Assembly (NCBI GenBank): GCA_025360455.1
Contig: JANYCF010000126.1
Span: forward strand, 1-46,843
Source: Opitutaceae bacterium
Lineage (GTDB): Bacteria > Verrucomicrobiota > Verrucomicrobiia > Opitutales > Opitutaceae
Direction: 5' to 3'
Length of the DNA: 46,843 nucleotides
In this document: positions 2,977 through 42,196 of the stretch, one piece after another
How positions within the stretch are numbered: position 1 is the first letter of the stretch
How the letters are laid out: each line of letters starts with the position of its first letter
The notes under the pieces: generated by a model
Database searches by the model: none
Seen by the model: the letters and a program-made list of their open reading frames with translations, nothing else
What the model was told of the DNA's origin: nothing
Translations under genes and position numbers: made by a program

Positions 2977-3032
2977 GTAGCCACGAGCGCCAGCGAGTGG
3001 TTTTCCTTCTGCTCGCTGGCGCTCGCAGCTAC
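2977..3032. repeat. Inverted GTAG-hairpin pair (BIME-like)
   Basis: GTAG at 2977-2980 is followed by CCACGAGCGCCAGCGAG, and the inverted partner CTCGCTGGCGCTCGCAG ends in CTAC at 3029-3032. The arms are imperfect inverted copies about 14 bases apart, and each can also fold on itself. It lies just upstream of the AsmA-like start codon. Confidence 0.65.
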
Positions 3033-3055
3033 CCCATCCAAGCCGACCTGCCTCG

Positions 3056-3078
3056 CGGGGTGAGGGCACCCCGCCCAC
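3056..3078 (-). repeat. Solo REP copy of the RAYT-associated family
   Basis: A perfect stem CGGGGTG / CACCCCG with loop AGGG is followed by CCCAC, so on the minus strand it begins GTGGG. It matches, base for base, the REP at 8139-8161 downstream of the RAYT gene, and differs by one base from the inverted copy at 7693-7715. Here no transposase is adjacent. Confidence 0.75.
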
Positions 3079-3123
3079 AAAATTACTCAGCACAAATAGC
3101 CGCATAGAATTAAAACTCACGGA

Positions 3124-4080
3124 TTAGTTGGCGGAAAACCCATCAGTTACGAGCACGACGGAATCAGCCGAAGCGGTGAACGAAAATTCGCCCGCGTAAG
3201 GCAGCACAACGTTGGCGCCGCGTGCGATCACGGTGCCGTCGGCCGCAGTCAACTGGCCCTCGACCACCGAGAAAATGCGGGCTTGCTCACCGGCTTTGAA
3301 AGCCAACTTGCCGCCACGGACCAACCGGTGCCGTGTGATGCGGAATTCCCGGCACTCGGCGAGCACCGCCATCGCTTCCGCCGTGCGCACGAGCTGCGGG
3401 GTGACTGCGGTGTTGGCCTCCAGCGAAGCGAGCGATTGCTCGATGTGGAGCGTACGCGGTTTGCCATCGAGACCGACGCGGCCCCAGTCGTAGACACGGT
3501 AAGTGGTGTCGGAGTTTTGCTGGATTTCGAGAATGAGATTACCCGCATCGATGGCATGCATGACGCCGCTGTGAATGAGCAGCGAATCTCCGGCCGTCGT
3601 GGGCAGGCGATACACGAGCGATTCCGCCGTGCCATCCTGCAACGCCGCCCGAAACCCCGCGCTATCGACGCCCGGCTTAAGACCGGCGAGCACTGCGGCA
3701 CCCGGTTCCGCTTGGGCCACGTACCAATTTTCCGTTTTGGGTTCACCGCCGAGTCCAGGGGCGATTGTTGCCGGGGGATGCACCTGCAAACTCAGCCGAT
3801 CGCTGCAATCCAGCCATTTGACTAAAATCGGAAAAGGCCGGTTCGCCGGCCACTTCGGCCCCATGATTTCTGCGGCATGGGTCGCGATCAGTTGTCGCAA
3901 GGTTTTACCGGCCCGCTCACCTCCGTCCACGACGGACTGAGCCTCCGGGCGATCGACGATCTCCCAGCTTTCGCCGATCGGACCGCCCGCTGGCAACGAG
4001 CGACCGAGATGCTTGGCCAAACCACGGCCACCCCACACCCGCTCTTGATAGAGCGGCGCAAATTGAAGATAGTTATTCAT
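3124..4080 (-). CDS. manA: Mannose-6-phosphate isomerase, class I (short form)
   Basis: The zinc enzyme interconverts mannose-6-phosphate and fructose-6-phosphate, feeding GDP-mannose for surface glycans. Metal and active-site signatures are present: LQVHPP (Gln/His ligands), EPKTENWY (Glu ligand region), GVMHAIDAG (His ligand) and NSDTTYRVYDWGR, the conserved substrate loop. At 318 residues it matches the short bacterial ManA type rather than the roughly 400-residue enterobacterial one. The start MNNYLQFAPLYQERVWGG fits the family N-terminus (the W-GG motif). It diverges from ftsK with a 92-base gap. There is no sugar nucleotide gene next to it. Confidence 0.92.
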   Translation of the reverse strand: MNNYLQFAPLYQERVWGGRGLAKHLGRSLPAGGPIGESWEIVDRPEAQSVVDGGERAGKTLRQLIATHAAEIMGPKWPANRPFPILVKWLDCSDRLSLQVHPPATIAPGLGGEPKTENWYVAQAEPGAAVLAGLKPGVDSAGFRAALQDGTAESLVYRLPTTAGDSLLIHSGVMHAIDAGNLILEIQQNSDTTYRVYDWGRVGLDGKPRTLHIEQSLASLEANTAVTPQLVRTAEAMAVLAECREFRITRHRLVRGGKLAFKAGEQARIFSVVEGQLTAADGTVIARGANVVLPYAGEFSFTASADSVVLVTDGFSAN

Positions 4081-4172
4081 GAGAGAAACATTTGATTAGG
4101 GTATATTGCGGTTCGGGGAATTTACATTGACCCCTCTGCCGATAAACTTGCTATTCAAGGAACCCAACTGAA

Positions 4173-6650
4173 ATGCCCAAAGCGGAGAATTCAAACTCAA
4201 AGGACGGTAATCCATCGTTCGAAAAACCGCGTTATCGCCGCCATTGGCTCGCGGCTGTCCTGTGGTTGGGTGGCGCCCTGTTATTAACGGTCGCCCTCGC
4301 CGATTTCATCCCGCAACAGAGCTACCAAAACACCACTTCCCCCGTGCCGAACGCCGTGGGGAAACTGGGTTCGGAATTTTGCTGGTGGTCCTACCATTTA
4401 ATCGGTGGGGCAACTTGGCTGGTCCCGATATTTTTGTACTGGATGACCTATATTAATCTCCGCACGGCCCGTCGGCTCGCCGCCATGCGCCTGCTCGCGA
4501 TGGGCTGCTGTATCGCCGCGCTGTCCACGCTGTTGTCGATGCAGACGACGATCTGCACCGATACTTCCGTCTACACAGACGGCCCCGGCGGTGCTCTCGG
4601 CAAATTGCTCTACGATGGGGTCTTGAATGATATCCTCGGCCTCTTCGGCACGGGACTCATCATGGTGACGATCTACTCCGTCGGCATGGTGTTTATCTTC
4701 ACCCACGATATCGGGATAGAATTCGGCAAACTCGTCCAAAGCTTCCACGACTGGCGCAAGCGCCGTGCCGACGAAAAATTTGCCATCACCGAGGATCGTC
4801 GCAAACAAATCGACAAAGCCGAAAAGGACAAAGTCGCCGCCGCCGCTCTTGCGGCCAAAACGGCGGCCGCCGCTCAAGCCGCCGCCGTGTTCAAGAAACC
4901 CACCGTGGTCGAGACCGCCACTGCGCCCGCAGCCGCCAGCCCACCGCCGAAAGCCGCAACGGCTACGCCCACGCCATCGCACATACCTCCTAAACCTACC
5001 ACCAGGCCGCCTTCGGAACCACCGGTCAGCAAGACCGCTCTTGACCCCAAACTACTGGCCGTCGCCGCGGGAAAGTTGGAACTCAATATCGTCAAGCCCG
5101 AGGAAACCAAAAAAGCCAAGGTCGTCCTTCCGCAGAGCGACGATAAAACCTACGAGTTTCCTCCGCTGAAGTTGATGAAGGAACAGGCGAAAATTTCCGC
5201 CGCCGACAGCGAAGAAGAACACCGCGGCAACGCCGAGAATCTCCTCCGCATCCTCAGCGAATTCGGCGTCGAGGTGAGCTTGGGCGAAATCCATGTCGGA
5301 CCGGTCATCACCCGCTACGAAGTGGTCCCTGCCCCCGGCGTACGCGTGGAGAAAATTTCCGGCTTGGACAAGAACATCGCCCTCGGCATGCGCGCGCAAT
5401 CCGTCCGCATCCTCGCCCCGATTCCCGGCAAGGCCGCCGTCGGCGTAGAAGTGCCGAATCAAATCCCCACCCCCGTCGGTATGCGTGAGATTCTTGAGAG
5501 CGAAGACTGGGCCAACGCCAAGGCCGAGCTCCCCATCGCGCTTGGCAAGGATGTTTCCGGCAAGCCCCTCGTTTCCGATCTCACCAAGATGCCCCACTTG
5601 CTCATCGCCGGCGCGACCGGTTCGGGCAAATCCGTCTGCATTAACTCGATCGTCGCCTCCATTCTTTATTCGAAGAGCCCCAAGGATGTCCGTCTGATCA
5701 TGGTCGACCCGAAGGTGGTGGAATTGAAAATCTTCAATTCCCTTCCGCACATGCTCATCCCGGTCGTCACCGAGGCCAAGAAAGTCCCGGGCGCGCTGAA
5801 ATGGCTGCTCAGCGAGATGGAGCAACGCTACCAGATTTTCGCCAAGGAAAATGTTCGTAACATCACCGGCTTCAATAACCGCAAGAAAGAGAAACCCGAG
5901 CCACCACCACCGGAATTCCAAGCTGAACTCGGCGGCCTCGAACCCGACATCGAAATCCCGGAGCGTTTGCCCTATATCGTGGCCATTATCGACGAACTCG
6001 CCGATCTCATGATGGTCGCACCCGCCGAAATTGAGACTAGTATCGCCCGCCTCGCCCAACTCGCCCGCGCCGCCGGCATCCACCTCATCATCGCAACCCA
6101 GCGCCCCTCGGTGAACGTCATCACCGGCGTCATCAAAGCCAATCTCCCCGCCCGTATCGCCTTCCAAGTCGCCTCCCAAATCGATTCCCGCACCATTCTC
6201 GACGGTAAAGGCGCCGAAACCCTCATCGGCCGCGGTGATATGCTTTTCACCCCGCCCGGCACATCCCGACTCGTTCGCGCCCAGGGCGCCTTCGTCGCCG
6301 ACGAAGAAATTCAAGCCATCGTCGATTTCCTCAAGCGCAACGGCCCACCCCAGTACGCCGTCGCCGTCCAGCAACATATTGATCGCGCCGCCCGCGAAGA
6401 TGACGAAGAAGGTGAGGGAGGCGGCGAGGACGGTGATTTGGGTGACGACGAAGCTTTGTTCCGCCAAGCACTGGACGTCTTGCGGTCCACCAAGCGCGCC
6501 TCCACTTCGATGATCCAGCGCCGGCTCCGCATCGGCTACAACCGCGCCGCCCGCATCATGGATGTGATGGAAGACAAAGGCATCATCGGCCCGGAAAATG
6601 GCTCCAGCCCCCGCGAAATCCTCGTCGATCTTGAAACCTACCGCCCCTAG
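4173..6650 (+). CDS. ftsK: DNA translocase FtsK
   Basis: FtsK is a division-site motor that pumps the chromosome termini through the septum. The 825-residue protein has an N-terminal membrane domain with about four helices (WLAAVLWLGGALLLTVALAD, then helices near 80, 110 and 155). A basic, Ala/Pro-rich linker covers about 195-330. The motor domain carries Walker A GATGSGKS at 480-487 and Walker B YIVAIIDELADLM with the DE pair at 607-608. The C-terminal winged-helix gamma domain (about 760-825, TSMIQRRLRIGYNRAARIMD) reads KOPS sites. The linker is short, as in SpoIIIE-like members. The ATG is preceded by AAGGAA at a suitable distance. No partner gene is adjacent upstream; rodZ-like follows after 289 bases of repeats. 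Confidence 0.97.
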   Translation: MPKAENSNSKDGNPSFEKPRYRRHWLAAVLWLGGALLLTVALADFIPQQSYQNTTSPVPNAVGKLGSEFCWWSYHLIGGATWLVPIFLYWMTYINLRTARRLAAMRLLAMGCCIAALSTLLSMQTTICTDTSVYTDGPGGALGKLLYDGVLNDILGLFGTGLIMVTIYSVGMVFIFTHDIGIEFGKLVQSFHDWRKRRADEKFAITEDRRKQIDKAEKDKVAAAALAAKTAAAAQAAAVFKKPTVVETATAPAAASPPPKAATATPTPSHIPPKPTTRPPSEPPVSKTALDPKLLAVAAGKLELNIVKPEETKKAKVVLPQSDDKTYEFPPLKLMKEQAKISAADSEEEHRGNAENLLRILSEFGVEVSLGEIHVGPVITRYEVVPAPGVRVEKISGLDKNIALGMRAQSVRILAPIPGKAAVGVEVPNQIPTPVGMREILESEDWANAKAELPIALGKDVSGKPLVSDLTKMPHLLIAGATGSGKSVCINSIVASILYSKSPKDVRLIMVDPKVVELKIFNSLPHMLIPVVTEAKKVPGALKWLLSEMEQRYQIFAKENVRNITGFNNRKKEKPEPPPPEFQAELGGLEPDIEIPERLPYIVAIIDELADLMMVAPAEIETSIARLAQLARAAGIHLIIATQRPSVNVITGVIKANLPARIAFQVASQIDSRTILDGKGAETLIGRGDMLFTPPGTSRLVRAQGAFVADEEIQAIVDFLKRNGPPQYAVAVQQHIDRAAREDDEEGEGGGEDGDLGDDEALFRQALDVLRSTKRASTSMIQRRLRIGYNRAARIMDVMEDKGIIGPENGSSPREILVDLETYRP

Positions 6651-6671
6651 GTAAACAGTCAGTCGCCTTGA

Positions 6672-6697
6672 GGTGGAACCCGGCCTCCGGACGGGTT
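6672..6697 (+). repeat. GTGG-type palindromic repeat, family 2 (solo)
   Basis: GGTGGAACCCGGCCTC is followed by CGGACGGGTT; the ends AACCCG and CGGGTT pair. The same unit recurs exactly at 16087-16112, and inverted with one mismatch at 16135-16160. Confidence 0.75.
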
Positions 6698-6713: not shown

Positions 6714-6791
6714 GTAGGAGGGGCTTTACGCCCCGATATTAAACGAGCGAGAAACTACGGTATGCGAATCGGGGCATAAAGCCCCTCCTAC
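6714..6791. repeat. Inverted GTAG-hairpin pair, family 3
   Basis: The left arm (6714-6737) reads GTAGGAGGGGCTTTACGCCC and the right arm (6768-6791) is its near-perfect inverted copy ending CCTCCTAC. Each arm contains its own GGGGC / GCCCC hairpin. It occupies most of the ftsK to rodZ-like gap. Confidence 0.8.
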
Positions 6792-7668: not shown

Positions 7669-7692
7669 GCATGAGCTGGTGGGTGTTTTCAT

Positions 7693-7715
7693 GTGGGCGG
7701 GGTGCCCCCACCCCG
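7693..7715 (-). repeat. REP copy upstream of RAYT (left flank)
   Basis: The unit is GTGGGCGGGGTG followed by CCCCCACCCCG, with stem CGGGGTG / CACCCCG and loop CCCC. It is the inverse of the copies at 3056 and 8139 (one base different) and ends about 10 bases before the RAYT start codon. Confidence 0.75.
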
Positions 7716-7724
7716 CAGCTCACC

Positions 7725-8393
7725 ATGCACCTGCCACACATCACTCCTTTCGCGAAGAATCCGCTCTATTTCTTCACCGCCAGTACTGAAGCCCGACGTC
7801 CTTTACTCGCCTGCCACTTAGCGTTTGATGAGCTCGTCGGAATCTGGACTCGTTCCACCACGAAAGACGGATGGTTTGTCGGCCGCTTTATGATCATGCC
7901 GGATCATGTGCATTTTTTCGCCATGGCCGCAGCTGGCTCCAGGCAGCGCGGTGAGTGGCACAAAATGGGGAAATCTGTTTCGGCGCGTACACTCTGCCGT
8001 GAGCTTAAAATCACCCCGCCCCTTTGGCAGACCGACACTTTCGACCATATTCTGAGGAGCAAAAATTCTTATGCCGAAAAATGGAAATATGTATGCGAGA
8101 ATCCGGTGCGAAAGGGATTGGTTCAAGTCGTTGCCTCACGGGGTGAGGGCACCCCGCCCACAAAAAAACCATTTCACCCTCACCGCAACGCCACCGGCGG
8201 GCCCAGCACTTCGCGCAAGACAAACGCCCGGCGCAACGCCTGTGGACTGCGGACATCCTCCAACAACACAGTACGCGCTTTTTGCAAAGCTGCGGGCTCT
8301 TTGTCCGCCGTCGACTCCTCGAATGTAACCCGCCGTTGCGCGGCAGCTTTCATCAATACCGCTTCCTGTAATTTTTCGGCCAGTGCTTTCTGA
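7725..8393 (+). CDS. rayt: REP-associated tyrosine transposase (RAYT, Y1/HUH)
   Basis: RAYTs are single-strand DNA endonucleases related to IS200/IS605 TnpA that cut at REP sequences. Catalytic residues are present: the HUH pair in MPDHVHFF (H61, H63) and the nucleophile Tyr122 in KWKYVCENPVRKGLV. The ATG at 7725 (MHLPHITPFAKNPLYFFTAS) is chosen over an upstream in-frame ATG at 7671, because the upstream stretch runs through a REP. Family members end soon after the ENPVRKGLV motif. Here codons from about residue 139 run through the right-hand REP and then about 215 bases antisense to the neighbouring gene, giving 222 residues. The C-terminal 84 residues look non-native, and the usual W-x-Y-x-G tail is lost. 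It may be active or recently damaged. Confidence 0.85.
   Translation: MHLPHITPFAKNPLYFFTASTEARRPLLACHLAFDELVGIWTRSTTKDGWFVGRFMIMPDHVHFFAMAAAGSRQRGEWHKMGKSVSARTLCRELKITPPLWQTDTFDHILRSKNSYAEKWKYVCENPVRKGLVQVVASRGEGTPPTKKPFHPHRNATGGPSTSRKTNARRNACGLRTSSNNTVRAFCKAAGSLSAVDSSNVTRRCAAAFINTASCNFSASAF
8139..8161 (+). repeat. REP copy at the 3' end of RAYT (right flank)
   Basis: The stem CGGGGTG / CACCCCG with loop AGGG is inverted relative to the copy at 7693-7715, so the RAYT gene is bracketed by a REP pair. It lies inside the RAYT reading frame. Confidence 0.75.
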
Positions 8394-8810: not shown

Positions 8811-8865
8811 GGTAGGGCGAAGCCTCTGGATGAGCCGCAGCTCGTCAGGGACGACTCGCCCTACC
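8811..8865. repeat. Inverted GTAG-hairpin pair, family 4
   Basis: GGTAGGGCGA at 8811-8820 pairs with TCGCCCTACC at 8856-8865. Inside, TCGTC-CCT-GACGA-type pairing is possible in the right half. It lies in the floA to hypothetical-protein gap. Confidence 0.7.
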
Positions 8866-13603: not shown

Positions 13604-13662
13604 GTAGCGCAGGCATCCTGCCTGCCCCCGAGAGGGAGAAGTAGGCTGGAAGCCTGTGCTAC
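13604..13662. repeat. Inverted GTAG-hairpin pair, family 5
   Basis: GTAG at 13604 followed by the hairpin GCAGGCA-TCC-TGCCTGC; the opposite end, read on the minus strand, is GTAG followed by AGGCT-TCC-AGCCT. It starts two bases after the EVE stop codon. Confidence 0.75.
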
Positions 13663-14578: not shown

Positions 14579-14612
14579 AATGATTACGCTGATCGGCGGT
14601 TACTCGTATTCC

Positions 14613-14691
14613 ATTGTCATCGCGAGGTGCGCAAAGCGCGCCGTGGCGATCCCGCTGGATTGCTTTGTCGCTTCGCTCCGCGCAATGACAA
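14613..14691. repeat. Long palindromic repeat, family 6 (no GTAG head)
   Basis: ATTGTCATCGCG at 14613-14624 pairs with CGCAATGACAA at 14681-14691. The inside is rich in GCGAAGCGAC-like words. It lacks the GTRG tetranucleotide seen in the other families, and resembles the widespread intergenic repeats with TTGTCATTGCGAG ends. Confidence 0.65.
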
Positions 14692-14719: not shown

Positions 14720-14743
14720 GTAGGAGCTTGCTTGCAAGCGACC
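14720..14743 (+). repeat. Solo GTAG-hairpin repeat, family 7
   Basis: GTAG followed by GAGCTTGCTTGCAAGCGACC; the stem is GCTTGC-TT-GCAAGC. It is related to the unit near 42177-42196, which on the minus strand is GTGG followed by GAGCGAGCTTGCTCGCGAC. Both look much like the best known Pseudomonas REP. Confidence 0.65.
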
Positions 14744-16086: not shown

Positions 16087-16160
16087 GGTGGAACCCGGCC
16101 TCCGGACGGGTTTGTTAGGCGCACATGGGAAGAAAACCCGTCCAGAGGCCGGGTTCCACC
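16087..16160. repeat. Inverted pair of family 2 GTGG repeats
   Basis: The left unit 16087-16112 is identical to 6672-6697. The right unit 16135-16160 is its inverted copy with one mismatch. The pair sits in the 253-base aroA to cmk gap. Confidence 0.8.
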
Positions 16161-17702: not shown

Positions 17703-17752
17703 GTAGGTGGCGTGCTTGCCACGCCACGTTGCGCGACAAGCGCGCAACCTAC
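17703..17752. repeat. Inverted GTAG-hairpin pair, family 9
   Basis: GTAG then the perfect hairpin GTGGCGTG-CTTGC-CACGCCAC. The other half, read on the minus strand, is GTAG then GTTGCGCG-CTTGT-CGCGCAAC. Both halves have 8-bp stems and 5-base loops. It lies between the converging plsC and trpS genes and could also act as a transcription barrier. Confidence 0.8.
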
Positions 17753-19596: not shown

Positions 19597-19672
<76 letters not shown>

Positions 19673-24019: not shown

Positions 24020-25180
24020 TCAAGGGTGAACCACCTGCTCCGGCCCATGGCTGATGGTTTTCAACCCTGCCGCGACCACCGCACTGATTGTTTCGTGGCG
24101 GTTGAAATGCTCGTAGATGCGGCGGCGGGCTTCGGCGCTGCACTCCAGGGCACGTTCGCAGGTTTCGCCGAGTGCTTTCAAATCTCCGTGCGGATAACGC
24201 AGAATCAGGCCCGCTTGATGCAACTCCTCGAGTCGGCCGCCTAGCTTCGAATTCTCGCTGACCGGTACCAAGCCCAACGTCCCCGCCCAAAAGGGACGAT
24301 CCGTGTGCGTCCGGTGCATCGACGGCGTGGTGAATTTCCGACCTTCCGGACAGAAGCCGACCTGAAAACGCGACAGACTCGTCCGCCCGGCCACCGACAA
24401 CGAGTGATCACAGATCGCAGTGAATTTATCGCGGAATTTTTTGGCCAGAAAATCTATCTGGCGTTGGCGATGAACGGTCAGACCGAGCTGGGAGCCGAGA
24501 AAAATTATTTTATTTTCCGGAGCTTCCACAAACGGTGAAGCGAACGGGACGAGATTCGCCACCCAACTCCGGTGCAGTTTCACGCAGTCGGCGCGCAACT
24601 GCGACTGAATGGACGGTGCCAGCGGATGCTCATCGTGGATGAGGACATCCAGATGGCGGGCGATCTCGGAAAAGGCGGGCATGCTGCGACTGGCATCATC
24701 AAAGGCGTAATATAAGATACGCACTCCCTGCAGGGCCAAGAGCTGCATGACCTTGCCGATCATTCCCACCATCATCTGCGGATGCTGGCCGGTGAGGACG
24801 AGCCACCATTCTTCGTCCGCGGGCTTGGTTGCCACCATCAGATCGGCGAGTCCGGATTTTCCAATCGCGCGTACGGGAAGAAACTCAATGTCGGCGGTCG
24901 CCGCCGCACCGAGCGCGCGGATGTTTTCGCCGTGCCAATCGCAATCGAGCCGCGCCATTTGCACGAGGGCCGGGTCGTCGGGCTTCGTGACCCGTTTCGC
25001 CACGTCGAGCGCCGGCAACCCGCGCAAATACTCGGCGCCATCCTGCAAACGATCCGCCCACGGACTGAACACAAACAACTTCACCCGGCGCAATGTCTTC
25101 GCAGCCGCACTTTTTTCCACCGGAACATTTCCCTGCGGATGCGCGGAATTTGGCGAAGGAGATTCGAGCACCGGGGTCAT
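24020..25180 (-). CDS. Uncharacterised protein, possible glycosyltransferase, in GT41 operon
   Basis: The 386-residue protein was not recognised with certainty. The segment VLIHDEHPLAPSIQSQLRAD suggests a GT-B-like Rossmann N-half. ENKIIFLGSQLGLTVHRQRQ, then VGFCPEGRKFTTPSMHRTHT and GTLGLVPVSENSKL, then LHQAGLILRYPHGDLKALGE and a C-terminal helix (RRIYEHFNRHETISAVVAAG), resemble the C-half of GT4/CgeB-like transferases (the glycan-side 'H-R-D' arrangement). There is no signal peptide or membrane helix. Its start overlaps the stop of the upstream GT41 gene by ATGA, so translation is coupled and it probably acts in the same glycosylation pathway. The function is inferred from context. Confidence 0.6.
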   Translation of the reverse strand: MTPVLESPSPNSAHPQGNVPVEKSAAAKTLRRVKLFVFSPWADRLQDGAEYLRGLPALDVAKRVTKPDDPALVQMARLDCDWHGENIRALGAAATADIEFLPVRAIGKSGLADLMVATKPADEEWWLVLTGQHPQMMVGMIGKVMQLLALQGVRILYYAFDDASRSMPAFSEIARHLDVLIHDEHPLAPSIQSQLRADCVKLHRSWVANLVPFASPFVEAPENKIIFLGSQLGLTVHRQRQIDFLAKKFRDKFTAICDHSLSVAGRTSLSRFQVGFCPEGRKFTTPSMHRTHTDRPFWAGTLGLVPVSENSKLGGRLEELHQAGLILRYPHGDLKALGETCERALECSAEARRRIYEHFNRHETISAVVAAGLKTISHGPEQVVHP

Positions 25181-27201
25181 GCGTGAAGAATGGCTTCAGG
25201 TTGCGCCACGGAGTGATGAGTAAGAGCGGGCGCCCGATCGCGACACCACTGTTGCCAACATGCGCGAACTGCGGCGCCGAATCGCGCGGCCTGTCCGACA
25301 TGATCGAGCAACGCACTGTGTTGCATCTCGCCGCGCAAAGATTGCCGCACCTCGACGCGCTTGACCGTATCATTGGCCAAAGCCACCGCGATGGCGACGT
25401 AGTCGACCCAATCTTGCGCGATCCATTCGCGACGACCGATGGCCGTGAGCAAACTCACTCCCACGCGTGAGGCATGGCGGTCGCCGGCCAGAGTCACCAC
25501 GGGCACACCCATCCAAAGCGCTTCACACGTGGTCGTGGTGCCATGGTAGGGAAAGGTATCAAGCGCCACATCCACTCGCGCGTAGAGTCCGAGATGCTCG
25601 GCCACGCCCGTCGTTCGCCCCAAAAGTTCGATGCGCTCCTGCTCCACGCCCAGCAAGACGAGTCGGGCACGCAACGCCGCAGCGAGCGCAGGCTCGGCGA
25701 GGCCGTGGCCTTTGAGCAACAAACGGGAGTGCGGTACGGCGGCGAGAATCTGGGCCCAGCCGCGCAAGGTGGAGTCGCTGACTTTGGCGAAATTATTGAA
25801 GCAGCCAAAAGTAACGGGGCCACCCGCCGCGCTCGGGACGGGGGCAGATTCGGGTGCATCCAACGGTGCTTGATAAGTCCAGGCGGTCGGAGCGTAGCGG
25901 ACGAGTTGCTCCGTGTGAAACGGCTCGGCTTCGCCGACGGGATCAGTGATCGCATCAACGAAACGATAATCCATCGTCCGCAATCCCGTGGTGTCGGGAT
26001 AGCCCAGCCAGGTAATTTGCACCGGTGCCAAGCGCCGAGCGTAGAGCGGCAATCGGTTGATACCGGTGTGGCCGGCCAAATCAATGAGCACATCGGGTGC
26101 ATCCGCCCGAATGACTGCTTCAATCGTCGCCAAATTTTGACCGTTAAAATTTCGCCACACTGCGGCGTGAGTGCGCAAACGCTCCGACATATCGTCCACC
26201 TGCGGGTGATCGTGATAGAGATAAATTTCACACTCCTTCAGATCGAAATGCGCGAGCAGCGGAGCCAAAAAATAGGCGACCGAATGCCGGCGCAGATCGG
26301 CAGAGAGAAAAGCAATCCGCAGTCGGCGCGTGGGCTCAGGCAGATTGGGAAAAACGGTTTGAACCGGTCCGGCACAGCTCTCGCCAAAGGCCACGTGCTC
26401 GGCAAACAAATCGGCGCGATCCACGTCGTCGAGATAATGGAGAGTCAACAAGCGCCCGCTGCGCGCTTCGTAATTTTTCGGATACAGCGCCAGCACGGCA
26501 CCATAGCCCGCCACCGCTTCCGGCAAACGATAAGTCAGTTGCCACGCCAAGGCGCGGGCAGTGAGGGCAAGCGCGTGCATCGGCGCGAGAGCGAGCGCAC
26601 GTTCGAAACAGAAAAAAGATTCTTCCAATCCGCCCGATTGCGCGAGCGAGGTGCCGAGATTGGCCCAACCCGTGGCATCATCCGGTTGAAGGGCGGTGAC
26701 GCGTCGATAGGCAGGAACGGCGGCGGCGAACCCACCGGTCTGACACGCGAGAGCACCCATCCGGTCATAGGCTTCGACGTAATCGGGCTTCAGCTTGACA
26801 GCTTGTTCATAGCCAGAGCGCGCCTCGGTTGTTTTGCCTTGGACGCCGAGAGTGATGGCGAGTTGGCACCACGCCTCCGCAAGACTGGCATCAAGTTTGA
26901 GTGCCGCGCGCAGATGGCGCTCCGACAAAACAAAATCCCGGAGCGCCGTGCAGGCCATGCCGAGTCGCATCGCACAGACAGCCGAGGAAGGATTCAGTTT
27001 AAGAGCGCGACCGAGCAACGCGGCGGCATCGCTGTGCCGGCCTTGTTGATAGGCGACGAGTCCTGAGAGATGCAGGGCATCGAAATTCTTCGGATCAGCG
27101 GCGCGCAAACGCAGATAAATAATCTCCGCTTCCTTCAGTCGGTTAGCCCGGTGGTGCGCCACCGCCTGTTGCAACTGGGACTGAAATTGGTTCGGCGACA
27201 T
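25177..27201 (-). CDS. TPR-containing O-linked N-acetylglucosamine transferase (GT41), copy 2
   Basis: The 674-residue cytoplasmic enzyme moves a sugar, probably GlcNAc, from UDP to Ser/Thr of proteins. Seven or so TPRs (about 1-250) precede a SPINDLY/OGT catalytic part. The catalytic-His region is FLSADLRRHSVAYFLAPLL (His306), GHTG is at 377-380 with LAPVQITWLGYPDTTGL, and LLLKG is at 494-498 (UDP-contacting Lys). LDTFPYHGTTTTCEALWMG follows, then LAGDRHASRVGVSLL. The ATG at 27201 (MSPNQFQSQL) is used; a longer in-frame reading to 27270 overlaps copy 1. It follows copy 1 as TGA-C-ATG and differs from it by one extra TPR at residues 174-208. Confidence 0.9.
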   Translation of the reverse strand: MSPNQFQSQLQQAVAHHRANRLKEAEIIYLRLRAADPKNFDALHLSGLVAYQQGRHSDAAALLGRALKLNPSSAVCAMRLGMACTALRDFVLSERHLRAALKLDASLAEAWCQLAITLGVQGKTTEARSGYEQAVKLKPDYVEAYDRMGALACQTGGFAAAVPAYRRVTALQPDDATGWANLGTSLAQSGGLEESFFCFERALALAPMHALALTARALAWQLTYRLPEAVAGYGAVLALYPKNYEARSGRLLTLHYLDDVDRADLFAEHVAFGESCAGPVQTVFPNLPEPTRRLRIAFLSADLRRHSVAYFLAPLLAHFDLKECEIYLYHDHPQVDDMSERLRTHAAVWRNFNGQNLATIEAVIRADAPDVLIDLAGHTGINRLPLYARRLAPVQITWLGYPDTTGLRTMDYRFVDAITDPVGEAEPFHTEQLVRYAPTAWTYQAPLDAPESAPVPSAAGGPVTFGCFNNFAKVSDSTLRGWAQILAAVPHSRLLLKGHGLAEPALAAALRARLVLLGVEQERIELLGRTTGVAEHLGLYARVDVALDTFPYHGTTTTCEALWMGVPVVTLAGDRHASRVGVSLLTAIGRREWIAQDWVDYVAIAVALANDTVKRVEVRQSLRGEMQHSALLDHVGQAARFGAAVRACWQQWCRDRAPALTHHSVAQPEAILHA

Positions 27202-27202
27202 G

Positions 27203-29092
27203 TCAGACGACGGCGAGCGCCGTAGAGCGGCAACAATAACTGCGCCAGCACTGGCGCAGAGCGGACCCAAAGCGGGCCGCCTGACCCTCGTAATCGAACA
27301 CCGTGCTGGCTTTCAATTCCGCGCGTAGACCGGCGCGCAGGCGAGTAAGTTTTCCGCGGTCGCCCGCCAACTCGGTCGCGAGCCGCACGTATTCTTCGGC
27401 GGAGTGCGCGATCCATTCCGGATGACCTGCCGCGGTGAGCAAACTGGCGCTGACGCGCGAGGCATGACGATCCCCGCGCAGGGTGACTACGGGCACGCCC
27501 ATCCAGAGCGATTCGCATGTCGTGGTCGTGCCGTGATAGGGAAATGTATCGAGGGAAATATCGACGCGGTGATAATGATAAAGATGTTCGCCTACTTCAG
27601 CGGTGCGTTCGCACAAATCAATGCGGTCGGCGGGCAAACCTGCCGCCGTAAAGCGCGCGAAGTATTGCTGGCGAGTGGCTTCTTCGGCGAGGCCCCAGCC
27701 TTTCAACAACAAACGTGAAGCGGGCACCGCCGCCATGACCCGGGCCCAGAGCGCCAGAGTGGCATCGTTAATTTTGGCGAGATTGTTGAAGCAACCAAAA
27801 GTAACCGGACGATCGTTGCCACTCGGCAGCGTATTGATTTCCGGCGTAACGTCAGGCGGCTGATAAACCCAGGCGGTGGAAGAAAAGCGCACGAGAGCTT
27901 CGGTAGCGAAGGCCTCGGAGTCGCCGGGCGGATCCGCGAGCGCATCCGTGAAGCGATAGTGCATGGCCGACAATCCGGTGGTATTGGGATAGCCAAGATA
28001 ATTGATCTGCACCGGAGCCAGGTGCCGGGCAAAAATTGAGAGCCGGGTGGTCATGCCGGTGTGGCCGGCCAGATCGATGATGATATCGGGTTCATCCGCG
28101 CGAATGGTTTGTTCGATCACAGGGTTGGGCTGACCGACAAAATTCCGCCAAACGGCAGCGTGCTCCTTGAAGCGTTGGGACACGGCGTCTTCACGGAAAT
28201 GATCGTGATACAGGTAGAGCTCGAATTGCTCCTGATCGAGATGGCGCACCAACGGCTCCAGAAAATATGCCACGGAGTGAGCCCGCAGATCAGGCGAAAG
28301 AATCGCCACGCGCAGGCGACGATTTGGTTCAGAGGACTGGCGAAATTCCGGCACAGGATAATCGCCCACCGCTGCGTTGAACTTCACATGCTCGGCAAAG
28401 AGCTGCTCGCGGGTGAGAGTATCGAGGTTGTTGAGGGCGAGCAGCCGATAACTGCGGGCTTCATGGCAGCCCGGCTCGAGCAGCAGAAAACGTTCGTAAG
28501 CCGCGATGGCCTCGGGAATGCGATACGATAACTGCAAGGCCTGCGCCCGACCATAATGACCTTTCGCATAGGATGGATCGGCGGCAAGTGCGCGATCATA
28601 CGCGCGCAAGGCTTCCACAAAGCGTCCGAAAATATTCAGGGTCAGCCCATAGTTATACCAGCCCATGGCGAAATCCGGCTTAAGCGTAAGGGCGCGATGG
28701 TGGCAATCGATGGCTTCGCGCAAGCGATCCTGTGACTTGAGGCAGGTCGCGAGATTGGACCAACCTTCGGCGTAATTCGGATCGATCTGCACGGCCCGCC
28801 GGCTGAAATACTCCGCCTCGCCGGCCCGACCGCACGCCGTGAGAGCGACTCCGAGCCGCATCGCGCAGACCGCCGACTTGGGTTCGATCTTGAGGGCGCG
28901 CTCGAGAAATTTCACCGCTTCAGCCGGGCGATTTTGCTGAAGCTCGATGACGCCGGAAAGTTGAACAGCATCAAAATTATTGGGCAAGATCAGCCGTACC
29001 CGGCGATAAAGCTCGGCGGCTTGTTCCAATCGACCGGCACGGTGGTGCGCCACCGCATCTTGAATCAGGCGTTGGAGCTGGGGCGGGGTCAT
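27203..29092 (-). CDS. TPR-containing O-linked N-acetylglucosamine transferase (GT41), copy 1
   Basis: A 629-residue paralogue of the downstream gene. TPRs fill about 1-225, with the shared SAVCAMRLG block at 74-82 in both proteins. The catalytic half has His272 (LRAHSVAYFLEPLV), GHTG at 343-346, LLLKG at 461-465, DTFPYHGTTTTCESLWMG (515-532) and DRHASRVSASLL. Relative to copy 2 every catalytic landmark is shifted by 33-34 residues, one TPR. It is the first gene of a three-gene operon whose likely acceptor is a surface protein, since bacterial OGTs mostly modify flagellins or pilins, but no such gene lies nearby. Sugar and acceptor remain inference. Confidence 0.92.
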   Translation of the reverse strand: MTPPQLQRLIQDAVAHHRAGRLEQAAELYRRVRLILPNNFDAVQLSGVIELQQNRPAEAVKFLERALKIEPKSAVCAMRLGVALTACGRAGEAEYFSRRAVQIDPNYAEGWSNLATCLKSQDRLREAIDCHHRALTLKPDFAMGWYNYGLTLNIFGRFVEALRAYDRALAADPSYAKGHYGRAQALQLSYRIPEAIAAYERFLLLEPGCHEARSYRLLALNNLDTLTREQLFAEHVKFNAAVGDYPVPEFRQSSEPNRRLRVAILSPDLRAHSVAYFLEPLVRHLDQEQFELYLYHDHFREDAVSQRFKEHAAVWRNFVGQPNPVIEQTIRADEPDIIIDLAGHTGMTTRLSIFARHLAPVQINYLGYPNTTGLSAMHYRFTDALADPPGDSEAFATEALVRFSSTAWVYQPPDVTPEINTLPSGNDRPVTFGCFNNLAKINDATLALWARVMAAVPASRLLLKGWGLAEEATRQQYFARFTAAGLPADRIDLCERTAEVGEHLYHYHRVDISLDTFPYHGTTTTCESLWMGVPVVTLRGDRHASRVSASLLTAAGHPEWIAHSAEEYVRLATELAGDRGKLTRLRAGLRAELKASTVFDYEGQAARFGSALRQCWRSYCCRSTALAVV

Positions 29093-38327: not shown

Positions 38328-39440
38328 ATGACCCGAATCGCTTTCTGGCTGACGCTGTTCTGTTTCACAGTCTTGGTCGTCGCCAAGTTTGACCCTCAAG
38401 CAGGATTCGCGAGACTGATCCGTTTCGGTGAAACCTTTCAAAGCCGTCAACTGCCATCACTCCAAGCCTTGTCGGTCCCAGTCGTCGCCCATTCTTCCGG
38501 CTACGACGGCCAATTTTATGCCCAGGTCGCGCTCGATCCTCTGTTGGGCAACCCCAATCTGGCGACGGCGCTCGACTCACCCGCTTACCGCGCCAGACGC
38601 ATTCTTGTTCCGGCCACCGCCGCGTTATTAGGTTTCGGCCAGCCTTGGTGGATTATTCAGCTCTACGCCTTGCTTAATGTCGGCGCTTGGTTCGCCTTTG
38701 CCTGGCTGCTAAAAAAAGAGCTGCCGATTGTAGACTGGATCTCGTTCGCCCGTTGGTTTGGCTGTGTTTTCAGCATGGGAGTGCTCGAAAGCGTAAGGCA
38801 ATCTTTGGTCGATTTACCCGCTGTGCTATTACTCGTAATGGCGGTGAGATCAAACGGCAGAAGCTCTGCCAAACCCACGACACTCTGGCTGGCCCTGGGA
38901 AATCTCACCAAGGAATCCAGCTTACTCGCGGCTACTGCACTGGCGGCGTATCGTCCCCACTTCCTCCGTCGCGGGCTACGCTATATCGTGGTGGCGGCCT
39001 TACCCGCCGTGGTCTGGTGGATCTATGTCTCAAGGCATTTCCCCTCAACCTCGATCAATTCCAGCGGATTCGGCAACTTCACCTGGCCTTTGCTTGGCTT
39101 AATCGATGAGACCATTCTTTCAACGCGCGCCATTCTTTCCGGCAACTTTGATAGCCGCTACACCTTCGCCCTAATCGGCATTGCCGGAATGATCATCCAA
39201 AGCACCATACTCTGGCGCAATCGGCAGCCCGACTCCCCTTGGTGGCGAATTGGCGCCGCCTATTCAATCCTGCTCCTTGTCCTTGGCCCCTGGGTCTGGG
39301 GTGGTTACTGGGCCGTCTGTCGGACCGTGCTACCCCTGACGATTGCCTTTAATCTCCTGCTCCCAGCCAATCGCATTTTTTGGCCGGTCTGGATCGGCGG
39401 TAATCTCACGATACTCCACGCGGTCTGGCGTTTTCTTTAA
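38328..39440 (+). CDS. Polytopic membrane protein, GT-C-like
   Basis: The 370-residue protein has about nine hydrophobic segments (for example MTRIAFWLTLFCFTVLVVAK, WWIIQLYALLNVGAWFAFAW, YIVVAALPAVVWWIYV, AAYSILLLVLGPWVWGGYWA). In the first loop GYDGQFYAQVALDPLLG is followed by YRARRILVPATAALL. The DGQFY and RRIL-x-P words recur in membrane glycosyltransferases of GT-C/mannosyltransferase type, and the loop Asp could be catalytic. Without more motifs it remains an uncharacterised GT-C candidate. It may be independent of the acc genes, since a terminator ends four bases before its ATG. Its end is four bases from the convergent prmA. Confidence 0.6.
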   Translation: MTRIAFWLTLFCFTVLVVAKFDPQAGFARLIRFGETFQSRQLPSLQALSVPVVAHSSGYDGQFYAQVALDPLLGNPNLATALDSPAYRARRILVPATAALLGFGQPWWIIQLYALLNVGAWFAFAWLLKKELPIVDWISFARWFGCVFSMGVLESVRQSLVDLPAVLLLVMAVRSNGRSSAKPTTLWLALGNLTKESSLLAATALAAYRPHFLRRGLRYIVVAALPAVVWWIYVSRHFPSTSINSSGFGNFTWPLLGLIDETILSTRAILSGNFDSRYTFALIGIAGMIIQSTILWRNRQPDSPWWRIGAAYSILLLVLGPWVWGGYWAVCRTVLPLTIAFNLLLPANRIFWPVWIGGNLTILHAVWRFL

Positions 39441-39444
39441 AGGC

Positions 39445-40320
39445 TCAACGCCTCCTGACCAGCACCAGATCGCTCCATTCACCCATCACGCGCGAATCCA
39501 CCGTCCAACCCGGAGCCGCCGTCGCGAAAGTTTCCCTGATCTGTGCCAGCTCTTGCGCAAGAATTCCGCTCAAAACCAACACGCCCGCTGGAGCCACGGC
39601 GCCCAATAATTCGGTTTTAAAGCGCATCAGCACATCCGATTGGATATTCGCCAGCACGAGCTCGGCCTGTCGTCCCGCGAGGCCCGACACCAGATCGCCC
39701 GTGAAAAAATCAACCCGGTTCGCCAATTGATTCATCTCCGCGTTCTCCTTACTCACGTCCACCGCCACCGGATCATTATCAAAAGCCGCAATAGCAGAGT
39801 AGCCCAGCTTCGCGGCTGAAAGCGCCAAAATTCCTGAGCCGCAGCCGGCATCAATGACTCGGCCTTTGTTGCCTCGCTCAGCCGTCAGCTTCGCCAATCG
39901 TTCCACCACGAGCCGTGTTGTCTCATGATTCCCCGTACCAAAAGCCATGCCCGGATCCAGCCAAAGCACTTGATCGCCCGCTGGCAGTTTAAAAGCCTCC
40001 CGCTCCCACACCGGCACCCAGTGCAACGACCCAAATTGCCATGCCTTGAAATGGGCCTTGTAGCTTTCCTTCCAATCCACATCTGCCAGTTCGTGCACTT
40101 CCGGTTCGGTCGCCAACCATTCGGCATCAATGCACGCGGCAAAATCTGTCCACGCCAGTTGTGCCTCACTCCGGGATTCGAAATATCCGGTCAACCAAGC
40201 CCGACCCGCGGGTTTATCCTCCAACACCATCAGCCGTTGTTCCTCGCGTTCGGCCAGCAAGTCCTCAATCGCCGGCACGGCTCCCAAGGCCACTTCAATT
40301 TTCAGTTCAAAAACAGGCAT
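39445..40320 (-). CDS. prmA: Ribosomal protein L11 methyltransferase
   Basis: PrmA methylates lysines and the N-terminus of ribosomal protein L11 with S-adenosylmethionine. In 291 residues the N-terminal L11-binding domain (about 1-95) includes AWLTGYFESRSEAQLAWTDF. A SAM-fold follows with PGMAFGTGNHETTRLVVERL (the GTG-x-H-x-T hallmark), VIDAGCGSGILALSAAKLG (motif I) and LVLANIQSDVLMRF in the motif IV position, which replaces the common NI-x-A-x-PL by NIQSDVL. It starts 3 bases from the stop of purN upstream on the minus strand, so they are co-transcribed. Confidence 0.93.
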   Translation of the reverse strand: MPVFELKIEVALGAVPAIEDLLAEREEQRLMVLEDKPAGRAWLTGYFESRSEAQLAWTDFAACIDAEWLATEPEVHELADVDWKESYKAHFKAWQFGSLHWVPVWEREAFKLPAGDQVLWLDPGMAFGTGNHETTRLVVERLAKLTAERGNKGRVIDAGCGSGILALSAAKLGYSAIAAFDNDPVAVDVSKENAEMNQLANRVDFFTGDLVSGLAGRQAELVLANIQSDVLMRFKTELLGAVAPAGVLVLSGILAQELAQIRETFATAAPGWTVDSRVMGEWSDLVLVRRR

Positions 40321-40322
40321 AA

Positions 40323-40901
40323 TTATTTCGCTCCTTCACTCAGTCGCGCGATCACCCTCGGCAGCAACTCATGTTCGGCTGCGTGCATTTTCGCGGAGAG
40401 TGATTCCAGCGTGTCGTCCGCCTCGATCCGCACCACTGCCTGATCGATGATCGGACCGCCATCCACTTCCGCCGTCACACCGTGAACCGTGCAACCCGTC
40501 ACCTTCACCCCGCGCCGCCACGCCTGCCCGATGCCATCAAGTCCCGGGAAACTCGGCAGCAAACTCGGGTGCAAATTAATAATCTTCCCGGCAAACGCAT
40601 TCAGAAAACCCGGTTTCACCACGCGCATGAAACCCGCGAGCACCACGAGATCGGGTTGAGCGGCTTGCACGGCCGCGATGAAACGCTCTTCGCCCACCCC
40701 TTCCAGCTTCGTCTTGAACGGCGCTGGATCAATGAAAGCCACCGGCACACCAAAACGTGCGCCCAACGCGAGAATCCCCGCATTCGGTTGATCCGATAAA
40801 ATCTGCACCACCCGCGCCGCACCCAAGTGCCCACGCTGCTGCGCCTCGAGGATCGCCTCGGCATTACTCCCCCGGCCTGAACCTAAAATGACAACTCGCA
40901 T
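40323..40901 (-). CDS. purN: Phosphoribosylglycinamide formyltransferase (GART)
   Basis: PurN transfers a formyl group from 10-formyl-THF to glycinamide ribonucleotide in purine synthesis. The 192-residue enzyme shows the folate/GAR loop VILGSGRGSNAEAI at the start and LVVLAGFMRVVKPGFL. The catalytic Asn/His/Asp set lies in INLHPSLLPSFPG and GCTVHGVTAEVDGGPII. Compared with the standard PurN the usual PGLHA-x-x-QA stretch reads PGLDGIGQAW, so the residue after PGL differs; key catalytic residues are kept. It precedes prmA by 2 bases. Confidence 0.95.
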   Translation of the reverse strand: MRVVILGSGRGSNAEAILEAQQRGHLGAARVVQILSDQPNAGILALGARFGVPVAFIDPAPFKTKLEGVGEERFIAAVQAAQPDLVVLAGFMRVVKPGFLNAFAGKIINLHPSLLPSFPGLDGIGQAWRRGVKVTGCTVHGVTAEVDGGPIIDQAVVRIEADDTLESLSAKMHAAEHELLPRVIARLSEGAK

Positions 40902-41074
40902 TGCCCCCAGTTAGTGGAAGGCCGCATCCGGAAGCACGCCAAATTTAAGCCTGCCGAAACTAAAAACGTAAGTCTTGTCCTTCGTTTCATCGCACCTAAA
41001 TCAATTCAGCCGCACACCCAACAAGTGCGATTCTCCCCTTGCACCACGAGATTTCTAAACCGAAACTAGCCGCC

Positions 41075-42142
41075 ATGACCGACTATCAAGCTCCGGAATT
41101 TCTCGTCGAGTTGCTCAAAGCCAAATCGCCCTCGGGCGCGGAAGCACAGGCCCAAGCCGTTTACGACCGATTCGTCAAATCACACGCCGACGCCTATGCC
41201 AACGATGCGCTCGGTTGCCGGCTGGCGACCCTGAACGCCAAGGGCGGACCCACCGTCATGTTCTCCGGCCACATGGATGAACTCGGTCTCATTATTACCT
41301 ACGTCAACAAGGACGGCTTCATCTATTTCGATACCATCGGCGGCCACGATCGCATCATGATCCCCGGTCGTCGCGTCATCGTGCAGACTGCCGCAGGTCC
41401 GATCAAAGGCGTCACTGGTAAACGCGCGGTTCATTTGATGGACGAAGCCGATCGCAAGAAAGTGCCGGAGATTCACGAAATCTGGATCGATATCGGAGCC
41501 AAAACCAAAGAAGAAGCACTCAAACGCGTGGCCATTGGCGACGTCGCGACCTACGACCATGAATTCGAATTAATCCATGGCAGCATCGGCACCGCCCGCG
41601 CCTTCGACAATAAAGTCGGTGCCTACATCGTCGGTGAAACCCTCATTCGCCTCGCCAAAGCCAAGGCCAAATTGAATGCAAAGATTGTCTCTGTGGCCAC
41701 GACACAGGAAGAAATCGGTGTGCGCGGCGCGACCACTTCCGCTTTCGCGGTCAATCCACATGTAGCGCTGGCCGTCGATGTTGGCCACGCAACGGATCAC
41801 CCCGATTGCGACAACCGTAAGTTCGGCGAAACGAAACTCGGCGGCGGTCCGATCATCTGCCGTGGTCCGAACATCAATCCCAAGGTTTTTGAGCGTCTGC
41901 TCGCTTGCGCGAAGAAGGCAAAGATCGTGATCCAGATCGATGCCGACCCACGCCCGACCGGGACAGACGCGCGGGCGATTCAAATGGCGCGTGGAGGTGT
42001 GGCCTGCGGCTTGGTTTCCATCCCGCTCCGTTATATGCATACCCCAAGCGAAGTCGTCGATTTACAGGATGTGGAGAATTGCGTGAAACTTTTCGTCGAA
42101 TTCGCCAAGTCGATCAGCAAAGACGAATCGTTTAATTGGTGA
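41075..42142 (+). CDS. M42 family metallopeptidase (glutamyl aminopeptidase/endoglucanase-like)
   Basis: Tetrahedral-type aminopeptidases of this family trim peptides with two metal ions. The 355-residue protein carries VMFSGHMDELGLIITYVNKD (His ligand and Asp), TARAFDNKVGAYIVGETLIR (Asp ligand) and VATTQEEIGVRGATTSA (catalytic Glu pair). AVDVGHATDHPDCDNRKFGE follows, and HTPSEVVDLQDVENC (His ligand) near the end. Start at 41075 (MTDYQAPEFLVELLKAKSPS) fits the family opening; a longer frame back to 41039 would need TTG. The gene stands alone between purN and the convergent clp operon, 154 bases from its terminator. Confidence 0.93.
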   Translation: MTDYQAPEFLVELLKAKSPSGAEAQAQAVYDRFVKSHADAYANDALGCRLATLNAKGGPTVMFSGHMDELGLIITYVNKDGFIYFDTIGGHDRIMIPGRRVIVQTAAGPIKGVTGKRAVHLMDEADRKKVPEIHEIWIDIGAKTKEEALKRVAIGDVATYDHEFELIHGSIGTARAFDNKVGAYIVGETLIRLAKAKAKLNAKIVSVATTQEEIGVRGATTSAFAVNPHVALAVDVGHATDHPDCDNRKFGETKLGGGPIICRGPNINPKVFERLLACAKKAKIVIQIDADPRPTGTDARAIQMARGGVACGLVSIPLRYMHTPSEVVDLQDVENCVKLFVEFAKSISKDESFNW

Positions 42143-42150
42143 GATAGCTC

Positions 42151-42196
42151 TGCTCGCGACTCGTTTGTCCAACGTCGCGAGCAAGCTCGCTCCCAC
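42151..42196. repeat. GTGG-hairpin repeat (family 7-like) with inverted arm
   Basis: TGCTCGCGAC at 42151-42160 pairs with GTCGCGAGCA at 42174-42183. Read on the minus strand from 42196 the unit is GTGG, then GAGCGAGCTTGCTCGCGAC with stem GCGAGC-TT-GCTCGC. This is nearly the common Pseudomonas REP. Confidence 0.7.

What the first reader, a model, noticed from the sequence alone, without database searches (positions are those of the whole stretch)
2977..42196. Many unrelated palindromes share a GTAG/GTGG head: a multi-family REP/BIME landscape
Seen: gaps at 2977, 6672, 6714, 8811, 13604, 14720, 16087, 17703 and 42177 hold short hairpins whose stems do not match between families, yet nearly all start with GTAG or GTGG, often in inverted pairs ending CTAC. 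The MITE core at 249-308 follows the same plan. Known: RAYT transposases recognise a short tetranucleotide plus a hairpin in REP/BIME elements. Inference: several RAYT lineages, or one with relaxed stem specificity, have spread different REP families through this genome. Such diversity packed into 40 kb looks unusual.
Basis: partly seen in the sequence, partly recalled or inferred. Interest (0 to 1): 0.75.

Follow-up and report, generated by a model that had tools for sequence, protein, structure and literature searches.

The report
Many RAYT transposases, each with REPs
This stretch of a bacterial chromosome carries about eleven families of tiny repeated DNA hairpins, most of them matched with their own helper-enzyme gene in the same genome; the kind of system is known, but this genome holds more of these enzyme genes than any of the 56 related genomes searched.

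Summary
All nine listed places and the MITE core hold GTAG/GTGG-headed hairpins, and so do four unlisted places. The eight families counted over the whole assembly have 28 to 222 copies; reversed-pattern controls give 0 or 1. The assembly has 18 RAYT-type genes. Fourteen have GTRG-headed REPs in their flanks, of 13 families (two RAYTs share one; one RAYT is seen on one side only). Nine of the window's eleven families have their RAYT in this assembly. H has its RAYT in a same-genus relative. For A none was found. So 'several RAYT lineages' is supported over 'one relaxed RAYT'. Across RAYT loci of relatives, REP similarity follows the RAYT tree, and stems change mostly by compensatory pairs. REP/RAYT systems, several GTAG families per genome and repeat-specific REPtrons are already published, Opitutus terrae included. 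What is added is the number of co-resident pairs, a natural table of RAYT-REP pairs, and GGAG-headed REPs in some relatives' RAYT clades. New member of a known kind.

The parts
222..345 (.). 124-bp MITE with terminal inverted repeats, carrying two inverted REPs of family P
   Evidence: 12 matches including itself at 81-100% identity and E 3.3e-16 or better, some partial; alignment; its left end (query 7-50, 87%) recurs just upstream of the RAYT of contig C164
249..308 (.). REP family P, head-to-head pair (GTAG at 249-252, CTAC at 305-308)
   Evidence: 285-308 minus, 3 mismatches, 0 in shuffles; RAYT of C164 (L008/L077) is flanked by GTAGGTCAGCGWGCTTGCWCGCGC on both sides
378..408 (-).
   Evidence: same type flanks RAYTs of C346 (L093) and C281 (L094)
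2977..3000 (+). REP family A: GTAG-CCAC-GA-GC-GCCA-GC-GA-GTGG (tandem G.A mismatches in the stem)
   Evidence: (16+16 copies); no RAYT found
3009..3032 (-). REP family A partner with compensatory stem CTGC/GCAG
3056..3078 (-). REP family O, a dispersed copy of the REP of the window's own RAYT
   Evidence: (25+18 copies)
6673..6697 (+). REP family B, GTGG head
   Evidence: 69+68 copies
6714..6737 (+). REP family C, GTAG head
   Evidence: 46+46 copies
6768..6791 (-). REP family C partner (inverted)
7693..7715 (+). REP family O, upstream flank of the RAYT
7671..8393 (+). RAYT gene (open frame; likely start ATG 7725, by eye; HMM match 7755-8132); HxH (MPDHVH) and Y..NP (YVCENP) present; the frame reads on through the downstream REP
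   Evidence: NF047646 E 4.8e-20 (71.9 bits, below the curated cut-off of 80); PDB 4er8 TnpA-REP E 0.0013
8139..8161 (-). REP family O, downstream flank of the RAYT, inside its open frame
8812..8864 (.). REP family D head-to-head pair (somewhat degenerate copy)
   Evidence: 25+18 copies of the core pattern; only the plus half of this pair matches it, with 1 mismatch
13604..13625 (+). REP family E
   Evidence: 40+34 copies
13641..13662 (-). REP family E partner (inverted)
14720..14742 (+). REP family F
   Evidence: 109+113 copies
16088..16112 (+). REP family B
16135..16159 (-). REP family B partner (inverted)
17703..17752 (.). REP family G head-to-head pair of two unlike halves (17703-17727 plus; 17728-17752 minus)
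   Evidence: RAYT of C37 (L009) has both halves in its flanks
42174..42196 (-). REP family H, GTGG head
   Evidence: 10+18 copies; exact copies flank a RAYT on both sides in the same-genus genome G001 (L141)

Best explanation
The palindromes are REP elements of at least eleven families. Each family is served, or was once served, by its own REP-associated tyrosine transposase (RAYT/TnpA-REP). The enzyme most likely folds onto single-stranded REP DNA, reads the 5' GTAG/GTGG tetranucleotide plus the loop and stem irregularities, and cleaves and rejoins next to it. That spreads copies of its own hairpin, often as inverted pairs, mainly between genes. The stem drifts by compensatory changes because shape matters more than stem letters. 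Shown here: multi-copy families; fourteen RAYT genes with REP-type flanks (one truncated at a contig end, so seen on one side only); REP similarity following the RAYT tree; stem covariation. Inferred from published work on other RAYTs: single-strand recognition, cleavage, mobilisation, and the role of head and loop.
For: Copies and controls. RAYTs: 18 NF047646 matches in the assembly, one in the window; H, H and Tyr invariant in the nine aligned; PDB 4er8 TnpA-REP matched at 1.8e-7 by the family-E RAYT and 0.0013 by the window's RAYT. Pairing: upstream flank against reverse-complemented downstream flank gives 33-56 on the diagonal for 9 of 18 RAYTs; off the diagonal only L093 x L094, which share family K, reaches 37, the next being 28. 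E is added with a wider flank (46). G, K (twice) and B were assigned by reading the flanks. Relatives: 77 of 105 usable RAYT loci have a matching inverted hairpin on both sides. Co-evolution, on the 52 RAYTs with the same head on both sides: Mantel rho 0.344, or 0.355 with the head removed, reached in 0 of 2000 permutations; the nearest RAYT of another genome has the nearest REP in 23 of 52 cases against a permuted mean of 1.1 and maximum of 5; 8 head changes on the tree against a shuffled minimum of 12. Covariation: 38 compensatory against 10 one-sided or broken among 401 stem pairs; in family D, 29 of the 31 exact-core copies have complementary 4-nt arms although the pattern left them free (counted by eye).
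Against: Nine of 18 RAYTs do not pass the diagonal test. Four of these were assigned by reading (G, K twice, B) and one by a wider flank (E). The other four have no GTRG REP seen: C27 and C94 have long terminal inverted repeats on both sides, C357 the same repeat on the one side that the contig holds, and C187:437 is cut by a contig end downstream. Families A and H have no RAYT in the 92.9%-complete assembly. B's RAYT is cut by a contig end and has an in-frame TGA. Of 77 hairpin pairs, 19 did not show a GTRG/GGAG head on both sides at the expected place. In the E-type set across phyla 22 of 55 upstream copies showed none, partly because the script can read the wrong strand. The head agreement (0 of 180 positions differing) is partly forced, because rows were chosen for a head on both sides in register. 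Vertical inheritance of a RAYT together with its flanks would also give the tree signal. Nothing here shows movement or binding.
Confidence: 0.9

Rival explanations
1. One or two RAYTs with relaxed stem specificity spread all families, and the RAYT-flank matches are chance landings.
For: The shared GTRG head; within families stems vary by compensatory changes; two RAYTs share family K.
Against: Flank REPs match within and, but for family K, not between RAYTs; REP similarity follows the RAYT tree; exact H units flank a RAYT on both sides in another genome.
Confidence: 0.04
2. A compatible side claim: some families (A, H, perhaps B) are relics. Their RAYT was lost or broken and the copies persist as inert DNA.
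For: No RAYT for A or H found in the assembly; B's RAYT has an in-frame TGA; a RAYT with H on both sides is in same-genus G001 (L141, no stop inside). Nunvar et al. 2013 (PMC3686654, passages read) report REP classes whose cognate RAYT is absent from the strain but present in relatives.
Against: The assembly is in 405 contigs and 92.9% complete, so the genes may lie in gaps; several RAYTs sit near contig ends. B still has 38 identical copies.
Confidence: 0.4
3. The hairpins are ordinary transcription terminators or RNA-stability hairpins kept by function, and the shared heads are incidental.
For: Most lie between genes; hairpins can act as terminators. REP roles in termination and RNA stability are named as hypotheses in the abstract of PMC3733652.
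Against: Near-identical copies of 22-25 nt at dozens of places, often in inverted pairs starting about 45-55 nt apart; a copy inside the RAYT reading frame (8139-8161); the only Rfam family over its threshold in the window is the tRNA; terminators do not, to my knowledge, share a fixed 5' tetranucleotide.
Confidence: 0.04

Closest known systems
GTAG-tagged REP super-family and repeat-specific REPtrons (Di Nocera et al. 2013, PMC3733652; abstract, sections 5, 14, 16 and passages read)
   Same: GTAG/GTGG head plus hairpin, dimers with unlike halves, several families per genome, RAYTs flanked by their own repeat, Opitutus terrae (Verrucomicrobia) highly enriched in them and mostly GTGG in one of its families, a 'plethora' of such genes with flanking repeats noted for P. 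fluorescens, R. baltica and S. maltophilia, RAYT-like genes with long TIRs as well
   Different: Here 14 REP-flanked RAYTs of 13 families in one draft genome; GGAG heads in some relatives' RAYT clades (GGAG does not occur at a word start in that paper's main text)
RAYT/REP pairs of Pseudomonas and Stenotrophomonas (Nunvar et al. 2010 PMC2817692 and 2013 PMC3686654; passages read)
   Same: GT(A/G)G head, inverted REPs on both sides of the gene, flanking REPs of orthologous genes that differ yet stay palindromic, cognate RAYT missing for some families
   Different: The 2013 paper reports two to three RAYTs per strain on average and a maximum of four in the strains studied; here 18 RAYT-type genes, 14 with REPs
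E. coli TnpA-REP and group 2/3 duos (PMC8266576; introduction and passages read)
   Same: GTAG, loop and stem bulge as recognition features; HuH and Tyr; families A and D have tandem G.A mismatches that may play the part of the bulge
   Different: No biochemistry here; the proteins are distant (4er8 match E 0.0013 to 1.8e-7)
TIR-associated tyrosine transposases (TIRYT) of PMC3733652
   Same: RAYT-like genes of C27, C357 and C94 have long terminal inverted repeats instead of REPs, by eye (C357 on one side only, contig end)
   Different: Not in the window; side finding

Membership tests
GTAG-type REP elements | 20-40 nt palindrome with GTAG/GTRG tag at one end | tested here: met
   the listed elements A, C and D fail the stem threshold and the window's D copy does not fold better than shuffles
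GTAG-type REP elements | High copy number, dispersed | tested here: met
   28-222 copies for the eight families counted genome-wide, reversed-pattern controls 0-1; G, P and K only in a sample
GTAG-type REP elements | Often in inverted dimers | tested here: met
   window pairs of A, B (one of two places), C, D, E, G, P; plus/minus listings; F and H are single in the window by these patterns
GTAG-type REP elements | Cognate RAYT flanked by the same repeat | tested here: met
   9 of the window's 11 families in this assembly, B on one side only; H only in a relative (L141); A not found, so not met for A
RAYT / TnpA-REP (window gene 7671-8393) | REP_Tyr_transpos profile NF047646 | tested here: inconclusive
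   E 4.8e-20 but 71.9 bits, below the curated cut-off of 80; 6 of the 18 genes of the assembly exceed it
RAYT / TnpA-REP (window gene 7671-8393) | HuH motif and catalytic Tyr | tested here: met
   MPDHVH and YVCENP in the translation; in nine other RAYTs of the assembly H, H and Y are invariant
RAYT / TnpA-REP (window gene 7671-8393) | Inverted REPs on both sides | tested here: met
   7693-7715 and 8139-8161
RAYT / TnpA-REP (window gene 7671-8393) | Cleaves and joins cognate single-stranded REP | not testable with these tools
   needs biochemistry

The most novel reading that the evidence does not exclude
One genome keeps at least thirteen RAYT-REP families apart by a readable code: the head (GTAG, GTGG and, in related clades, GGAG) plus loop and stem irregularities name the enzyme, while stem letters are free. 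The RAYT family then forms a natural table from which the specificity rules, including a GGAG guide that I did not find in print, could be read and tested.
Probability: 0.45. Interest if true: 0.65.

Novelty: new member of a known kind. Interest (0 to 1): 0.45.

Why it matters
How RAYTs choose their REPs has been studied with three enzyme/REP duos (PMC8266576, abstract and passages read). A genome with 14 REP-flanked RAYTs and 13 REP families, and relatives in which REP and RAYT change together, gives a large ready-made set for finding which residues read which head or loop, and for asking how so many selfish hairpin families coexist without cross-mobilisation.

Tried and rejected
Relaxed single RAYT: rejected by the flank matrix and the tree tests.

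Rfam origin of the hairpins: only the tRNA at 19600-19672 reached threshold.

De novo 15-mer repeat discovery in 273.7 kb (window plus 20 stretches) gave three repeat seeds besides runs of N, because copies are dispersed and divergent; patterns were used instead.

First hairpin scan of the flanks was too strict and found REPs at 3 of 18 loci; replaced. The null has a maximum of 526, presumably from near-identical loci, so I used its 99th percentile (38).

Residues that might read the head: the position after WQxxF is W in 7 of 8 GGAG and 0 of 44 GTRG RAYTs. But TnpA-REP 4er8 also has W there (alignment); that it is the E. coli protein is recalled, that E. coli REPs have GTAG is in PMC8266576. 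So I make no claim.

Finding a RAYT for family A among 187 RAYT loci (18 own, 89 relatives, 80 across phyla): none flanked by it. L132 has an A pair beyond its E repeats. The REPs of L126/L148 (GGAG-GGCC-GA-GC-TCCC-GC-GA-GGCC) share A's layout, which is only a lead.

CGTC-type element at about 14,605-14,690: one weak sample match for one half, none for the other, inconclusive; the CGTC label is my guess.

Taxon: not determined. The closest RAYT-E relatives are mostly Verrucomicrobia MAGs, and the tool says that records of the window's own genome may be left out there.
Full report
What was checked. The window is the whole contig C251 of a 405-contig, 4.85-Mb draft, 92.9% complete. I name the families A (2977), B (6673, 16088), C (6714), D (8812), E (13604), F (14720), G (17703), H (42174-42196, minus strand) and P (MITE core). 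Four more places were not listed: O at 3056, 7693 and 8139, and K at 378.

Are they repeats? Yes. Counts over the assembly, both strands, were A 32, B 137, C 92, D 43 (core pattern), E 74, F 222, H 28 and O 43, with 0 for the reversed pattern except 1 for E. G, P and K were counted only in a 221.5-kb sample of 20 contigs (G 2+2, P 2, K 2-3 hits; control 0). GTRG-headed hairpins exceed dinucleotide shuffles in 22 hand-picked, mostly intergenic stretches: 15 against a mean of 1.31 and maximum of 5. Those 15 include repeated readings of one element, one in a tRNA gene and one that is not a REP. GTAG alone is not among the 12 top tetranucleotides there, though GTGG is first.

Which enzymes? NF047646 (REP-associated tyrosine transposase) has 18 matches in the assembly, the most of the 57 genomes searched (own plus 56 relatives; 42 of 57 have any at E 1e-8 or better, and the next highest has 13). 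Pfam PF01797 found 14, a partly different set. One of the 18 lies in the window, 7755-8132 in the frame 7671-8393, with HxH and the Tyr motif and a weak match to solved TnpA-REP. Its score is under the curated cut-off.

Pairing. Comparing each RAYT's upstream flank with the reverse complement of every downstream flank gives 33-56 on the diagonal for nine of 18 RAYTs: P, D, F, J, M, C, O, N and I. Off the diagonal only L093 x L094 reaches 37, and those two share family K; the next is 28. With a wider flank E is added. G, both K loci and B (downstream side only, contig end, in-frame TGA) were read from the flanks. So 14 of 18 RAYTs have GTRG-headed REPs, of 13 families. Of the other four, C27 and C94 have long terminal inverted repeats, whose downstream copies lie outside the flanks compared; C357 has the same repeat on the one side present; and C187:437 is cut by a contig end. 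Of the window's eleven families nine have their RAYT in this assembly. H has exact copies on both sides of a RAYT in same-genus G001 (L141). A has no RAYT among the 187 RAYT loci looked at.

Across relatives. For 107 RAYT loci (18 own, 89 from relatives), 69 score above the 99th percentile of mismatched flank pairs. By the hairpin method, 77 of the 105 with usable flanks have a matching inverted hairpin on both sides, and 58 of these show a GTAG, GTGG or GGAG head on both, 19 not. In the 49 that could be compared in register, stems differ in 48 of 401 pairs, 38 of them by compensatory change. Loop positions differ in 21 of 178 and positions outside the unit in 92 of 186 and 46 of 98. Heads differ in 0 of 180, but rows were chosen for having heads. 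Conservation begins one base before the head (30 of 33 pairs alike for GTAG) and drops at the next base out (12 of 32).

Co-evolution. On 52 RAYTs with the same head on both sides, REP distance follows RAYT tree distance: rho 0.344, 0.355 without the head, 0 of 2000 permutations. The nearest RAYT of another genome has the nearest REP in 23 of 52, against a permuted mean of 1.1 and maximum of 5. Head type changes 8 times on the tree, against at least 12 in 2000 shuffles. The 107-row tree groups RAYTs of window families with relatives that carry the same or a very similar REP: E with L132, P with L142 and L146, F with L157 and L134, C with L140 and L116 (weakly supported), D with L144, L136, L114 and L135. 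This fits recognition of each REP by its own RAYT, but common descent of gene and flanks would also give it.

Across phyla. A scan with the family-E RAYT gave 319 relatives, 80 kept. Of the 65 that I analysed, 55 have inverted hairpins on both sides. REPs very like E (GTAGCGCAGGCWTCCWGCCTGC) flank RAYTs in a planctomycete, a Brocadia and Opitutaceae, and a similar one in a betaproteobacterium. Eleven have GGAG heads and 22 show no head by the script.

The MITE. The 124-bp element at 222-345 has 12 matches including itself at E 3.3e-16 or better. Its REP pair is family P, and its left end recurs upstream of the P-family RAYT (L008/L077), so it may be a deletion derivative of a RAYT-bearing element. 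The right end was not seen there.

How it most likely works. By analogy with published TnpA-REP work (PMC8266576), each RAYT binds its own folded single-stranded REP through the tetranucleotide, loop and stem irregularity, and cuts and joins beside it. Families A and D have tandem G.A mismatches flanked by stems that covary (29 of 31 exact-core copies in D; in A 5 of 9 units in six loci had perfectly complementary arms), which may serve as such an irregularity. That part is inference.

What is known. GTAG/GTGG REPs, unlike-half dimers, several families per genome, repeat-specific REPtrons, the richness of Opitutus terrae and a 'plethora' of such genes in three other species are in PMC3733652 (abstract, sections 5, 14, 16 and passages read). 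In Pseudomonas and Stenotrophomonas strains at most four RAYTs per genome were found (PMC3686654, passage read). More than five copies of one subclass occur in some Chromatiales and Alteromonadales, and genes of two subclasses are flanked by REPs with GT[AG]G tetranucleotides (PMC6006769, section 14 and passages read). RepRanger (PMC12306157) has no mention of RAYT or Verrucomicrobia in its main text. Searches for RAYT with Verrucomicrobia, REPIN or Opitut- (listings, most papers not opened) showed no other title or abstract that describes such a many-pair genome. A whole-word search with GGAG listed nine REP/RAYT papers, none holding the word. The library lacks most subscription journals; Bertels et al. 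2017 I know only through PMC6006769.

Verdict. Real, multi-copy and RAYT-linked: a rich example of a known kind.

Noticed in passing
window 7671-8393: An unlisted RAYT gene whose open frame runs on through its own downstream REP, so the REP codes for part of the C-terminus or the natural stop has been lost.
   Followed up: partly
L104, L108, L139, L154, L163, L165, L172, L177 (relatives); 11 loci such as L224, L238, L248, L263, L274: REPs with a GGAG head instead of GTAG/GTGG, in several RAYT clades; GGAG as a REP tag was not found in the papers searched.
   Followed up: partly
L003, L004, L005 (contigs C94, C357, C27): RAYT-like genes of the HVINRGNYR type with terminal inverted repeats of about 23-26 bp by eye (TIRYT type; C357 seen on one side only); the C27 and C357 copies are very similar, so this one may move as a unit.
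   Followed up: partly
window 1-221: The contig seems to begin inside a broken transposase-like gene next to the MITE (judged by eye only, not searched).
   Followed up: no
window 14605-14690: A long palindrome of the TTGTCATCGCGAGG...GCAATGACAA type, perhaps of the CGTC class (my guess); one weak match in the sample.
   Followed up: partly
window 25177-29092: Two neighbouring minus-strand genes share 76-80% identical stretches 1.99 kb apart (D1 and D2), probably a tandem gene duplication.
   Followed up: no
L084 (contig C208:34-351): The RAYT next to a family-B REP has an in-frame TGA although B is one of the most abundant families counted (137 copies, 38 identical).
   Followed up: partly
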